Below are positions 1 to 64,000 of a stretch of DNA of 64,000 bases, in pieces. Numbering within the stretch: the first letter of the stretch is position 1; the number at the start of each line of letters is the position of its first letter. Source of the stretch: Candidatus Aenigmatarchaeota archaeon (GTDB lineage: Archaea; Aenigmatarchaeota; Aenigmatarchaeia; CG10238-14; SCSR01); NCBI GenBank assembly GCA_016181005.1, contig JACPAE010000004.1:1-64000 (forward strand). Direction: 5' to 3'. The position numbers and the translations under genes were made by a program. The notes beneath the pieces are model-generated. The model saw only the letters and a list, made by a program, of their open reading frames with translations. It was not told the origin of the DNA and ran no database searches.

Positions 1-51
1 GGTGACCGATTTTTCCGGCAGTAAGGATTTTACCTTTTCTAGAATTTCCAT
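1..51 (-). CDS. Start of aCPSF1-like beta-CASP ribonuclease (partial)
   Basis: Only the first 17 codons are in the window (reading MEILEKVKSLLPEKSVT) and the gene runs off the left edge. The short amphipathic N-terminal helix resembles the beginning of the KH-domain region of archaeal aCPSF1, a 3'-end-processing and transcription-terminating ribonuclease. In many archaea that gene directly follows psmB, which is the arrangement here (28 nt after the psmB stop). The call rests on position plus a very short sequence, so it is tentative. Confidence 0.4.
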   Translation of the reverse strand, partial: MEILEKVKSLLPEKSVT

Positions 52-78
52 TTAAGACACACTTAAAAAAAGTAACTA

Positions 79-614
79 TCACTTGGCAATCTTGTCGATT
101 GGATTCCTTACAATCTTTACGCCTTCTTTTGTTATTGTCGCGATGTCGATCGACTTTCCACCCGAACCGATGTCACGCTCAATCGCCGATTTAATTGACC
201 TCATTGCAAGCTTGCCCCCTTCCTCCACTGTCAATCCTTCCTTGTAGCTGTCCTCAAGCACTCCCAATGCCATAGGAGAGCCTGAGCCTGTCGAGAAGAA
301 TTTCTTCTCCTCCTCTGCAGATCCTATCGCGTCCAAATCAAATATGTGCGGTCCTGTAGCATCATAGCCAGCTATCATCAGCTGAACAAAATAAGGATAG
401 AACTTGCTGTTCTGCAGGATGTTCGAAAGCAATGTCGCGGCACCCCCGACCGAAAGCTTTCTCTGGTTCTCTATTTCAAACAGCTTTTCAAGTAACCCAT
501 CGTTGACTTGCTCTCTGCAGCAAGAATCACCCCGTCCTTGCACACCATTCCGACTGTTGTTGTCCCAGTCTTCTTTACCTGCAAAGTTTTTTCCAAATCT
601 TCTCTCAAAGACAT
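79..614 (-). pseudogene. psmB: Proteasome beta subunit, internally deleted and frameshifted
   Basis: The 5' part (from the ATG at 614) encodes a short propeptide ending in G, then the catalytic Thr (TGTTTVGMVCKDGV) and the Glu17-equivalent (ILAAESKSTMGYL). The reading frame then jumps at about 490: the remaining protein (EKLFEIENQRKLSVGGAATL, then LSNILQ to the C-terminus NPIDKIAK) is normal beta-subunit sequence but in another frame. Compared with known archaeal beta subunits about 35 residues are missing at the junction, including the segment with catalytic Lys33 and the conserved TIAGSVGDAQ-type motif. As written it cannot make an active subunit. Either the gene is broken (a second psmB would be expected elsewhere) or the assembly dropped roughly 110 nt. 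A TATA-like TTTTTAAA lies near 651-659. The aCPSF1-like gene follows, a common archaeal neighbour. Confidence 0.85.
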
Positions 615-650: not shown

Positions 651-995
651 TTAAAAAGATTTTGATTTTAATTGTCTTTGGCGATAAGGAATTAGGGCAG
701 TAATTAACTCATAAGGTGCTACTACTTTCACATTCCTTGGATCGGTCCGTCTAATTTCCCATGCGTAATTTTGCATTCTTCGTAATTCATCACCAGATAA
801 CTGCAAACTTGCTGATGCTACAGTCCTGAGAATAGCGATTAATTCTGGAGTAAGTCCAGTTCTACCAGGGTACATCTGATCCAAACCATTTCGTATATCA
901 CCAAATAATGTTGGATCAGCATCCGCCATATCTCCAGCATACTGATTAATTAAATCATAACATGTTAGAAATGTTAGATATTGCGGACTTGTCAT
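651..995 (-). CDS. Hypothetical protein (114 aa)
   Basis: I do not recognise this protein. It has no signal peptide or membrane segment, looks mostly helical, and ends in a basic tail (RQRQLKSKSF). It lies alone between proS and psmB, with a TATA-like AT-rich stretch upstream of its start near 1000-1025. Its A+T-rich composition resembles the other orphan genes of the window (for example 2508-2870 and 45569-46417). It is a real coding candidate because the frame is long and fills the gap between two genes on the same strand. Confidence 0.55.
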   Translation of the reverse strand: MTSPQYLTFLTCYDLINQYAGDMADADPTLFGDIRNGLDQMYPGRTGLTPELIAILRTVASASLQLSGDELRRMQNYAWEIRRTDPRNVKVVAPYELITALIPYRQRQLKSKSF

Positions 996-2507: not shown

Positions 2508-2870
2508 TTATAAAAGGGGTAATTGAAGTTCAGAAAAAGACGATTGTCGTCCATTGTGATTCTCCTGCATATGCTGATTATAACCATTCTCTAATACGCT
2601 CTTTCTACTGCCCAACTCACCGTAATTAAATAACATGAGTGGAACAGAAGGAATTCTATAGCCATTTGGTTCAACTCTACTGACAGTCATAGATGGAGGA
2701 GACTGATAAACAGTTCCTCTCAAACAACCTTCTAAAATTACATATGGAACAAAATCGCATTCTCGAGGATCTGCAATGATACAGGAAACCGCTTCGTCGC
2801 CTGTAGGTGTGTACACTTTTATAAGATCAGATATACTCAACTCACCTAGGGGTGTGTACAAGCTTATCAA
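2508..2870 (-). CDS. Hypothetical protein (120 aa)
   Basis: I do not recognise a family. The protein is soluble, beta-rich at the N-terminus, and has Gln/Asn/Ser-rich C-terminal residues (HMQENHNGRQSSFSELQLPLL). It is read away from mre11-rad50 and its start is only about 20 nt from the centre of the palindromic TATA element at 2882-2901, so it may be transcribed leaderless from the same promoter region. It stops 25 nt before the proS start on the same strand, so proS could be cotranscribed with it. Confidence 0.55.
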   Translation of the reverse strand: MISLYTPLGELSISDLIKVYTPTGDEAVSCIIADPRECDFVPYVILEGCLRGTVYQSPPSMTVSRVEPNGYRIPSVPLMLFNYGELGSRKSVLENGYNQHMQENHNGRQSSFSELQLPLL

Positions 2871-26679: not shown

Positions 26680-28014
26680 CTACAAGAAAACTTTGATTTT
26701 CCTCTTCCCGACAATCGCCCTGAAAACTTCCTTTCCAATGTCCGAATCCTTGGCAACTTTAATGTTTCCATTCTTTCCTATAGTCGCGGAAAAAATGAAT
26801 TTGTCTTCAATAAACAGGCTTGCAGCCTTGCCGATGAACCTCCTGTCAAAAACAAATTCCACGCTGTTGCCCTTTTCATAAGTCTCGAAAAGAATCTCGT
26901 TCCCAAGTGCGGCGGTCTTGGGTTCGATGTCTATCTTTATCCCCAGCTTGTCTTCCAATGCATTAACAGTAGAACCCTCCTTCCCGATTATCCTCGGCAC
27001 AACGCTATTGTCAACCTTCACAACAACTTTGTTTTCTGATACAAGCTCAACTATTGCACGCGGATCAAACTTCCTTATGTCCTGCATTATCCTCTCTGCC
27101 GCAAGCTTCTTCACTGGAGAAATTCCCGCGGCAGTCTCCTTCACAGGTACGATGACCTTCTCCTCGCCGAACGTGTAAATCTCGTATTCCAGCTTCTCTG
27201 TCTCAAAGTCCCTTATCTCGACCAAAGGCCTTGCAAGATCAGCTTCCATCATTCCGCTGGGAACTTTCACCGTCAAATCCAGGTCGTATATCTTCTTCAC
27301 CTGCCCATCCTTCACGAAAATGACAGTGTCTACCACGTGCGGGATAACTCCCAGCTCCACTCTTCCAATGAATCTCTGGATTGCGTCAATAGCCTGGCTT
27401 GCATGCACAACACCCACCATTCCGACTCCAGCCAACCTCAAGTCCGAGAATATTTCGAAATCTTTCGTCTTCCTTACTTCGTCGAATGCGGAATAGTCTG
27501 GCCGGACAAGGAGCAGAATGTCCGCAGTCTTTTCAAAGTCCCCTTCAAGAGGCCCGTACTGCGTGACCTCGTCAGGAACCTGCAAGTCGCGCGGCGATTC
27601 CAGCGTCTTCACTATCTTTCCTTGCTTCTGATAAAACTCTACAAGGCTTGCGCACAATGTCGACTTGCCAGAGCCAGGCGGGCCTGCGATTACAACCCCC
27701 TCAGCCTTTTTCCTCAACCTGTCCATTAACTTGTCAGAAAGCTTGTAATCTTCCAGCGTAAGCTTTACCACAGGCCTTACAATCGTGACCTCCATCCCGT
27801 CAGAAAACGGTGGTCGCGTTATTGAAATCCTGAACCTGCCAAACTGTATAACCGTTGCACCCGAACGCACAATTTCAAACGAGCCTTCGTCGCTGACTCT
27901 TGTCGCTTCGGATATCTCTCTGATAATTTCCTCTAGCTGAACCCTTGTCATTTTTTCTCCACTCAACTTCATCAGCTCGAAATTTCCGGGCTTGCCCCTT
28001 TTTGCCATGGGCAC
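26680..28014 (-). CDS. ATPase-KH part of PIN/PilT-like ATPase (split gene, C-terminal part)
   Basis: This is the ATPase and KH portion of an archaeal family that normally has PIN, PilT-like ATPase and KH domains in one chain of about 600 aa. Walker A is VIAGPPGSGKSTL (about 110), Walker B-like LLLVRPDYSAFDEVRK (about 165), VVHASQAIDAIQRFIG (about 203) and the KH motif VVPRIIGKEGSTVNALED (about 350). Its frame overlaps the PIN gene by 43 nt in a different phase. The conserved linker usually reading like MSVHLKEG before PMAKRGKPG is missing, so a short deletion (about 20 nt) probably broke one gene into two. An internal ATG (MPMAKRG) could still start this half. Confidence 0.82.
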   Translation of the reverse strand: MPMAKRGKPGNFELMKLSGEKMTRVQLEEIIREISEATRVSDEGSFEIVRSGATVIQFGRFRISITRPPFSDGMEVTIVRPVVKLTLEDYKLSDKLMDRLRKKAEGVVIAGPPGSGKSTLCASLVEFYQKQGKIVKTLESPRDLQVPDEVTQYGPLEGDFEKTADILLLVRPDYSAFDEVRKTKDFEIFSDLRLAGVGMVGVVHASQAIDAIQRFIGRVELGVIPHVVDTVIFVKDGQVKKIYDLDLTVKVPSGMMEADLARPLVEIRDFETEKLEYEIYTFGEEKVIVPVKETAAGISPVKKLAAERIMQDIRKFDPRAIVELVSENKVVVKVDNSVVPRIIGKEGSTVNALEDKLGIKIDIEPKTAALGNEILFETYEKGNSVEFVFDRRFIGKAASLFIEDKFIFSATIGKNGNIKVAKDSDIGKEVFRAIVGKRKIKVFL

Positions 28015-28478
28015 GATATCGTGTCGGTCGTGAAGAACTGTTCAAATTTCAGCCCCTCGGACTTTATCTCAGCGGGTATGTGCTTTACCTTTGCGCCTTC
28101 GGCCTCGCCGACAAGCGCCTGCACGTAATCAGCCGTATAAAGAACGCCACCCTCAGCCTTTGCTACGTCTCTGATAAGGGCGTCCATCCTTCCGGATTTG
28201 GCCAGCTTGATATCCTCAATCGACGGCCTTTCACCGGTGAATCTTAGCTTGATGTCCTTCTTGTCGCACAAACTGCGCAACCTTTTAAGTTCACCCAGAC
28301 CTACGAATCCGGGTTCTCTTCCTTTTGAAGCCTGGGCCTGGAGCTCGTCCAGCACCGCGTACGGGACAATTATTTCTGCGTTATCCAGCTCCCCGCTTTC
28401 AATCATCTCGGAAATCTTCGCATCGACAATTATCGATGTGTCCAAAATGATACGTTCTTTTTCATTCATGTAAATCAC
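27972..28478 (-). CDS. PIN domain part of PIN/PilT-like ATPase (split gene, N-terminal part)
   Basis: 168 aa. The PIN nuclease fold shows acidic residues ILDTSIIVDAKI (D near 13), VPYAVLDELQAQA, GRMDALIRDVAKAE and LYTADYVQALVG, so the catalytic acidic cluster looks intact. It continues until FFTTDT in normal family sequence and then runs into an out-of-frame tail (ISCPWQKGASPEISS). The domain itself is complete and might function as a separate chain alongside the ATPase-KH part. Its start overlaps the hisS stop by 4 nt, indicating cotranscription after hisS. Confidence 0.82.
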   Translation of the reverse strand: MIYMNEKERIILDTSIIVDAKISEMIESGELDNAEIIVPYAVLDELQAQASKGREPGFVGLGELKRLRSLCDKKDIKLRFTGERPSIEDIKLAKSGRMDALIRDVAKAEGGVLYTADYVQALVGEAEGAKVKHIPAEIKSEGLKFEQFFTTDTISCPWQKGASPEISS

Positions 28479-62224: not shown

Positions 62225-63033
62225 TCATTTCGAAGGCTTTCCGCCATCGCCAAGCTTCATGAATCTGCCGTCCTTCTTTATAACAGCAATGTCGGTCACA
62301 ATGTCCCTTTTCTCCTTGTCCGATTTCTCAGTCTTGTCGATTATTTCCAAAGCCAAATCAGTGGCCTCCTTTTCGCTCATGCCGTCCTTCCATTTTTGGT
62401 TCAGCAACTTGTTGGCCAATGCCGCGCCTCTTCCTATGGCCTGCGCCCTCCACTCGAACAGCGTGCCCGAAGGATCGGTCTCAATCAAGTGAACCCCTGA
62501 CCTGTCCACGCCTCCAAGCAGCATCGACACACCAAAAGGCCTTAAACCGCCATATTGCGTAATCAACTGCATCCTGTTTCCTATCACCTTGCCGATGTTC
62601 CAGACGTCGACAGGCTCGCTATAAGTAAGCTTGTGCATCTGCGCCCTCACCCTTATCATCTGGACCAGAACCCTGGCGTCAGCTATAAAGCCCGAGGCAA
62701 CCGCGCCCATATGGTCGTCTACTTGGAATATCTTTTCTGTCGCGTCCGATACGACCAGCTTTCCCGTAGGCTTGACAGTGGCAAAAACAATGCCATCCTT
62801 GAATGTTATTCCTAGTGCTGTGCTGCCTCTCTTGACGGCCTCTTTTGCGTACTCTAACCAGGCGAAAAAGGAAACCCTTAATTCGCTACCTGGAACAAGC
62901 GGCCATCAGGCGAGAATCTACACCAAATAGCTATTACACTATCTGATTACATAGCCATCGTCCGATCATAACCCATTTGAATAACAGCCAGCAATTAACT
63001 GAACCATTAATATTCCGGCATGATCTCAGGCAT
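62225..63033 (-). CDS. psmA: Proteasome alpha subunit, gene interrupted by three BHB introns
   Basis: Outer-ring subunit of the 20S proteasome. Exon 1 is 63010-63033, exon 2 62949-62976, exon 3 62888-62915, exon 4 62225-62855. Joined, they give 711 nt (236 aa) starting [18 protein letters not shown] and continuing [20 protein letters not shown], a near-perfect match to archaeal PsmA N-termini, including the gate-forming YDR and the [13 protein letters not shown] motif. The chosen ATG has GGTGAT five bases upstream. Without splicing, stops follow immediately: TAA after codon 8, TAA at the exon 2-intron junction, and TAA three codons into intron 3. The rest of the subunit is intact, ending in KDGRFMKLGDGGKPSK. 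It heads the operon with sdo1, rrp4, rrp41, rrp42 and rpl39e. Splicing is inferred from structure and homology and has not been observed. Confidence 0.88.
62856..62887 (-). other. psmA intron C (32 nt, bulge-helix-bulge)
   Basis: Central helix CCAG (62890-62893) with CTGG (62858-62861). Bulges are GTA (62887-62889) and TTA (62855-62857), and the inner helix is GCGAA/TTCGC next to an AAGG/CCTT pairing. Cutting after the second base of each bulge joins CAG GT to A GAG TAC, restoring Gln-Val-Glu-Tyr of the universal FQVEYA motif. The outer helix is weak (two pairs). Confidence 0.85.
62916..62948 (-). other. psmA intron B (33 nt, bulge-helix-bulge)
   Basis: Central helix CTAT (62951-62954) with GTAG (62918-62921, one wobble). 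Bulges are GTA (62948-62950) and ATT (62915-62917). A nine-pair inner helix, ATCAGATAG with CTATTTGGT, closes an 8-nt loop. Cutting after the second base of each bulge joins ATG T to TC TCG, giving Met-Phe-Ser-Pro as in known PsmA proteins. The outer helix has two pairs. Confidence 0.87.
62977..63009 (-). other. psmA intron A (33 nt, bulge-helix-bulge)
   Basis: Central helix GAAT (63012-63015) with ATTC (62979-62982). Bulges are ATT (63009-63011) and AAA (62976-62978). The inner helix is AATGGTT/GGCTGTT (seven pairs, several wobbles) and there is a short outer helix CCG/TGG. Cutting after the second base of each bulge joins GAA TAT to ATG GGT, keeping the frame into Gly-Tyr-Asp-Arg. This intron affects only the variable N-terminal tail, so homology supports it less than introns B and C. 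Confidence 0.78.
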
Positions 63034-63088: not shown

Positions 63089-64000
63089 TTAGAATTTAGT
63101 ATTAGGGTTTATATTGTTTTTCAATTTCCAATTAACTGTTTCGATAGGTCCTCTTTTGCTTATCACACTCTTTTCTACTAGACCTTCTTCGACCAGTTTA
63201 TGTACATTCTTCCAGATTACATCACGATTTCGATTAACTATTCTACATAAATCTTTAGTTCTTAATACACTACCCATTTTTAATGCGTCTAATATTCTCA
63301 TTTTTGACTCACCCTTTCCATAAGTTTTATAGCTGTTAATGGTTTGCACCAATTTCCCTTTCTTTTTATTGTCAGTAAAGCCTACGGTTTCTATAAATTT
63401 CATAAGATTGTACCGTCCGTATATATTAAACCCTATTGATGTTGAATCATATGGTTGTTTTCTTTCATAAAGCCCATTTGGAGATATACCTAAGGAAAGT
63501 AGAATTCCTCTTATATCTTCCATAAATTTTTTGTGAGCGTTTAATAGAAAGTTCTTTTTGTTCATACTAAATCCTATTACATAATTTCCTTTGCTATTGA
63601 TGACAGTTCCTTCATCATCGAAAAGTGCCCTGATAAAAGCTGATTTAATGTTAAGAGAACCATTTTTAATCCATTCTGGTATTGTTAGAGCTTGTTTTAC
63701 TTTTTCACCTTTCGGAAAACCGCATAAAACTAGGAATCTAGCTACTGTTTTAGGCGGATATATTTCGTAGAACTCTCGTTCTTTATTAAAATTCCAATTT
63801 GGATAAATTCCAAACAAGCCTTTAACTAGCATTCTAAATTCGTCAGCCAAATCCTTACTTTTGTTGGTATAATATACATTTTCTTCCCCTTGTTTAATAC
63901 AGCCATCACCTAGAACATGTCCTAAAAGTGATGCTATTTTCTCATTAGCCTTAAATGGCATTTCGACATTTATGATATACTGACCTCTATGTAACTTTAG
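63089..64000 (-). CDS. LAGLIDADG homing endonuclease-like protein with C-terminal winged helix (partial)
   Basis: The frame is open to the right edge of the window. Two LAGLIDADG-type helices are seen: IASLLGHVLGDGCIKQGEEN and IKSAFIRALFDDEGTVINSK, each with the acidic residue (GDG, DDEG) that binds metal. The C-terminal about 65 residues (MRILDALKMGSVLRTKDLCR and onward) form a winged-helix-like DNA-binding domain. An ATG at 63961 is possible, but sequence before it (HRGQYIINVEMPF) looks like normal family sequence, so the real start is probably beyond the window. It is A+T-rich, unlike the neighbouring exosome genes, consistent with transfer. Whether it is free-standing, intron-encoded or part of an intein cannot be decided here. 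Confidence 0.8.
   Translation of the reverse strand, partial: LKLHRGQYIINVEMPFKANEKIASLLGHVLGDGCIKQGEENVYYTNKSKDLADEFRMLVKGLFGIYPNWNFNKEREFYEIYPPKTVARFLVLCGFPKGEKVKQALTIPEWIKNGSLNIKSAFIRALFDDEGTVINSKGNYVIGFSMNKKNFLLNAHKKFMEDIRGILLSLGISPNGLYERKQPYDSTSIGFNIYGRYNLMKFIETVGFTDNKKKGKLVQTINSYKTYGKGESKMRILDALKMGSVLRTKDLCRIVNRNRDVIWKNVHKLVEEGLVEKSVISKRGPIETVNWKLKNNINPNTKF

What the first reader, a model, noticed from the sequence alone, without database searches (positions are those of the whole stretch)
79..614. Proteasome beta gene lacks about 35 internal codons including catalytic Lys33
Sequence flanking position about 490 is perfectly normal on both sides but in different frames; the region holding Lys33 and the TIAGSVGDAQ-type motif is gone. 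The essential partner of the intron-bearing psmA is thus non-functional as written.
Basis: seen in the sequence. Interest (0 to 1): 0.6.

Follow-up and report, generated by a model that had tools for sequence, protein, structure and literature searches.

The report
Proteasome gene cut by assembly error
The proteasome beta-subunit gene in this draft archaeal genome really does lack 112 bases as written, but the same genome carries similar clean cuts and exact small duplications in other indispensable genes, so it is almost certainly an error made when short reads were assembled and not biology.

Summary
On the minus strand (window 79-614) an archaeal 20S proteasome beta gene runs normally through residue L25 of the mature chain (TTTVGMVCKDGVILAAESKSTMGYL). 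It resumes, in another frame, at K64 (KLFEIENQRK...). All 26 relatives parsed, including the four of the same genus, have exactly 38 residues there. No second psmB and no copy of the missing piece exists in the 740-kb assembly.

The cause is most likely a local assembly error. The genome is a short-read MAG (Aenigmatarchaeota): its contigs overlap at their ends by exactly 99 bp, and one such end lies inside psmB itself. A genome-wide comparison with a same-genus genome found six further frame-breaking events of the same kind: clean deletions of 110, 86, 22 and 20 nt, and exact tandem duplications of 26 and 23 nt. They hit threonyl-tRNA synthetase and ribosomal protein uS11, which cannot both be dead in a living cell. 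Relatives' MAGs show similar breaks. A real deletion in part of the population is the main rival; raw reads would settle it.

The parts
490..614 (-). psmB 5' part: start codon, short propeptide, TG^TTT (Thr1) through Y24-L25 (MGYL)
486..490 (-). junction GGTTACTTGA|AAAGCTGTTTGAA where 112 nt (residues 26-63, incl. Lys33 and AGxSGDAQ) are missing; exact cut is ambiguous by a few bases
79..486 (-). psmB 3' part: K64 LFEIENQRK ... IDKIAK stop, in a different frame
1..99 (.). 99-bp exact overlap between the start of this contig (C4) and the start of contig C3 (which carries the neighbouring aCPSF1-like gene): a de Bruijn graph break inside the psmB 3' end
27987..28035 (-). second frame-breaking event in the window, in a PIN/ATPase/KH-type gene (26683-28457): net -22 nt

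Best explanation
It is an ordinary archaeal 20S proteasome beta gene (psmB) of a DPANN archaeon (Aenigmatarchaeota), from which 112 nt were lost when short reads were assembled and scaffolded into a MAG. Shown: the gene is syntenic and otherwise normal, the segment is absent from the assembly, and the assembly has six other frame-breaking deletions or exact tandem duplications in conserved genes. Inferred: the assembler joined two contig ends with a wrongly estimated overlap, trimming 112 nt. Where the overlap was under-estimated, the same process leaves exact duplications of 23-26 nt. The living cell presumably has an intact psmB.
For: Contig ends overlap by exactly 99 bp in three pairs that involve all five contigs, and C4 carries 25 Ns, which marks a scaffolded de Bruijn assembly. 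One of these ends falls in psmB itself, about 390 bp from the junction. About 360 genes could be compared with a same-genus genome. In G000, seven of them carry a clean frame-breaking event: psmB -112, Gfo/Idh-like -110, ThrRS -86, PIN-KH ATPase -22, TadA-like ATPase -20, EndoIII +26 and uS11 +23. The two insertions are exact tandem duplications, the only non-triplet ones of period 12-120 nt in the genome. ThrRS and uS11 each occur in G000 only as these broken copies; uS11 is intact in every relative where it was found and ThrRS in same-genus G002, G003 and G004. Other MAGs show the same class of break: G003 has -88, -1 and +2, and ThrRS is broken in G001. [quoted passage not shown]
Against: No reads could be mapped, so the junction was not shown to lack read support. 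The assembler was not identified; k of 99 or 100 was only inferred from the overlap. A de Bruijn path normally needs k-mers that span a junction, so a true variant in part of the population cannot be excluded.
Confidence: 0.88

Rival explanations
1. A real 112-nt deletion present in some cells (a strain variant or pseudogene) was picked by the assembler, while other cells keep an intact psmB.
For: The contig breaks 390 bp away with a 99-bp overlap, so a second graph path may exist near psmB in the sample. Possible microhomology TTGA at the junction.
Against: It would have to be repeated for uS11, ThrRS and four other genes in the same assembly. No direct repeat long enough to drive the deletion is apparent.
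Confidence: 0.09
2. The deletion is fixed and the lineage lives without an active 20S proteasome, or with another protease.
For: No second psmB or HslV-like gene in the assembly. psmA is also unusual at its N-terminus.
Against: All four same-genus relatives have an intact psmB, as do nearly all of the 37 genomes searched. The remaining psmB sequence is still well conserved (81% to G003), with no further stops. Essential uS11 is broken in the same way.
Confidence: 0.02
3. The missing segment is supplied in trans or restored at RNA level (split gene, trans-splicing, recoding).
For: The genus seems to have small interruptions in psmA. A -1 slip on AAAA would rejoin the frames.
Against: The missing segment is nowhere in the assembly; the only hit is the psmA paralogue at 35%. 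A -1 slip would still lack residues 26-63 including Lys33.
Confidence: 0.01

Closest known systems
Archaeal 20S proteasome beta subunit (NCBIfam TIGR03634, Pfam PF00227)
   Same: Both flanks match model positions 1-26 and 65-185 and keep Thr1 and Glu17; conserved neighbours proS and aCPSF1-like gene
   Different: Residues 26-63, including catalytic Lys33, are absent as written and the frame is shifted
Local assembly errors of short-read metagenome assemblies (described in PMC7111523; script ra2.py used in PMC5220378)
   Same: Clean joins that break conserved genes, small exact duplications, 99-bp contig-end overlaps, several per genome
   Different: Read support at the site could not be examined here

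Membership tests
Archaeal 20S proteasome beta subunit | N-terminal nucleophile Thr1 after a short propeptide | tested here: met
   KKTG^TTTVG present
Archaeal 20S proteasome beta subunit | Lys33 and the AGxxGDAQ segment | tested here: not met
   112 nt missing; all 26 parsed relatives have 38 residues there
Archaeal 20S proteasome beta subunit | Single open frame scoring above the family cut-off (224 bits) | tested here: not met
   Halves score 29.8 and 147.2 bits separately
Archaeal 20S proteasome beta subunit | Conserved genomic context | tested here: met
   proS - psmB - aCPSF1-like order as in relatives
Local assembly error | Assembly made from short reads by a k-mer graph, with scaffolding | tested here: met
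   Exact 99-bp end overlaps and 25 Ns
Local assembly error | Same kind of break in unrelated indispensable single-copy genes | tested here: met
   uS11 +23, ThrRS -86 and four others
Local assembly error | No read supports the consensus across the junction | not testable with these tools
   No reads held

The most novel reading that the evidence does not exclude
The organism really carries a 112-nt deletion in its only psmB and lives without a canonical active 20S proteasome, or restores the product by an unknown RNA-level process.
Probability: 0.02. Interest if true: 0.75.

Novelty: not a real feature. Interest (0 to 1): 0.08.

Why it matters
It cautions against reading gene loss, pseudogenes or recoding from single MAG loci. 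In this assembly about 2% of comparable conserved genes (7 of about 360) are frame-broken, and at least two of the seven are genes that cannot be lost. A real loss of the catalytic proteasome subunit in an archaeon would be surprising, but nothing here requires it.

Tried and rejected
Second psmB or HslV in the genome: none. Missing segment encoded elsewhere (split or trans-spliced gene): only the psmA paralogue at 35%, and by DNA only the psmB flanks plus short chance hits. Intact alternative copy on another contig: only the 99-bp overlap with C3. Insertions in uS11 and EndoIII as short bulge-helix-bulge introns: they are exact tandem copies, and the same ad hoc scan gave no clear signal for the psmA insertions used as a yardstick, so it does not discriminate. 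HtpX and two antisense ORFs flagged as 'split' were dropped: HtpX is two adjacent genes, the others are on the non-coding strand. Splits where one genome carries a long insertion (intein- or intron-like) were also left out of the count. No Rfam match in the window.

Full report
Observation. Window 79-614 on the minus strand holds an archaeal proteasome beta gene in two frames. The first part, MSLREDLEKTLQVKKTGTTTVGMVCKDGVILAAESKSTMGYL, matches positions 1-26 of NCBIfam TIGR03634. The second, KLFEIENQRKLSVGGAATLLSNIL...IDKIAK, matches positions 65-185 (Pfam PF00227 likewise). Aligned with the four same-genus orthologues (G001-G004), the gene lacks 112 nt between TTGA and AAAGCTG; a separate protein-to-DNA calculation gives the same -112. 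All 26 relatives that could be parsed have exactly 38 residues between GYL and KLF, so the missing piece is residues 26-63 of the mature chain, with Lys33 and the AGxSGDAQ motif.

Context. The window is the first 64 kb of contig C4 of a 740-kb, five-contig genome. Its nearest named relative is a groundwater Aenigmatarchaeota MAG (L043). The order proS - psmB - aCPSF1-like metallo-beta-lactamase gene is the same in relatives; in this assembly the last gene lies on contig C3, which starts with the same 99 bp as C4. Thus psmB is the true orthologue in its normal place. The genome has no other PF00227 protein except psmA, and the missing segment is found nowhere else.

Cause. I read the whole genome as stretches and most of a same-genus genome, G003. 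Contig ends overlap by exactly 99 bp in three pairs (C1-C5, C2-C4, C4-C3) and C4 contains one run of 25 Ns: this is a scaffolded short-read k-mer assembly, and it broke inside the 3' end of psmB. Then G003 proteins were compared with G000 DNA. 344 genes matched in one piece and 16 were split. After removing antisense ORFs, adjacent genes, and splits explained by long insertions or other length differences (inteins and the like), seven are clean frame-breaking events in conserved genes: psmB -112, a Gfo/Idh-like oxidoreductase -110, threonyl-tRNA synthetase -86, a PIN-KH ATPase -22, a TadA-like ATPase -20, endonuclease III +26 and ribosomal protein uS11 +23. The names of the genes other than psmB were given from their sequences and general knowledge, not from a family search. 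The two insertions are exact tandem copies of the neighbouring sequence; they are the only exact tandem duplications of period 12-120 nt in the genome whose period is not a multiple of three.

uS11 and ThrRS exist in G000 only as broken copies. uS11 is intact in every relative where it was found, and ThrRS is intact in the same-genus G002, G003 and G004. A cell cannot lack both, so at least those two are errors of the assembly, and psmB belongs to the same set. The control in the other direction shows that MAGs of relatives have such breaks too: G003 has -88, -1 and +2, and ThrRS is broken in G001. The literature describes this: local assembly errors that no read supports, suspected to be most frequent with IDBA-UD; unmerged overlaps leaving duplicate sequence; and perfect end overlaps of n or n-1 for the largest k-mer (PMC7111523). 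A script (ra2.py) is in use to correct such local scaffolding errors (PMC5220378).

Mechanism (inferred). When a scaffolder joins two contig ends with an estimated negative gap, an overestimate of the overlap trims real sequence (psmB and the other deletions), and an underestimate leaves a tandem copy (uS11, EndoIII). This step rests on general knowledge of such software and was not shown.

What remains open. Without reads I cannot exclude that some cells in the sample carry the deletion. Even if a ribosome slipped at AAAA and rejoined the frames, the product would lack residues 26-63 and could not be an active beta subunit. A fixed loss of the only proteasome beta gene is very unlikely: its remaining codons are still conserved, its four genus relatives keep it intact, and the assembly shows the same damage elsewhere.

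Verdict.

Noticed in passing
window 62225-63030 (-): psmA N-terminus: conserved pieces MPEIMPEY / MGYDRTMAM / FSPDGRLFQV / EYAKEAVKRG are separated by three stop-containing insertions of 33, 33 and 32 nt, which lie in predicted hairpins (fold z-score only -1.66); the G003 psmA is also interrupted once between MGYDRT and AVFSPDGRL. Possible mini-introns, not copies of flanking sequence.
   Followed up: partly
window 63089-63961 (-): LAGLIDADG_3 homing-endonuclease-like ORF just upstream of psmA, not inside the matched psmA pieces.
   Followed up: partly
window 26683-28457 (-): PIN-KH ATPase gene broken by a net -22 nt at about 28012; probably another assembly error.
   Followed up: yes
L093 (genome C5:172609-172654) and L075 (genome C2:58666-58717): Exact out-of-frame tandem duplications of 23 nt in ribosomal protein uS11 and 26 nt in endonuclease III.
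   Followed up: yes
genome C5:176439-178640 (L093) and C1:173682-174926 (L071): Genes with long insertions relative to G003 (intein- or intron-like): a C5 gene of 733 aa against 364 aa, and a C1 gene of about 115 aa split by about 0.94 kb.
   Followed up: no
window 651-995 (-) and 2508-2870 (-): Two small ORFs flanking proS with no Pfam match; the one between psmB and proS has no counterpart near psmB in relatives.
   Followed up: partly
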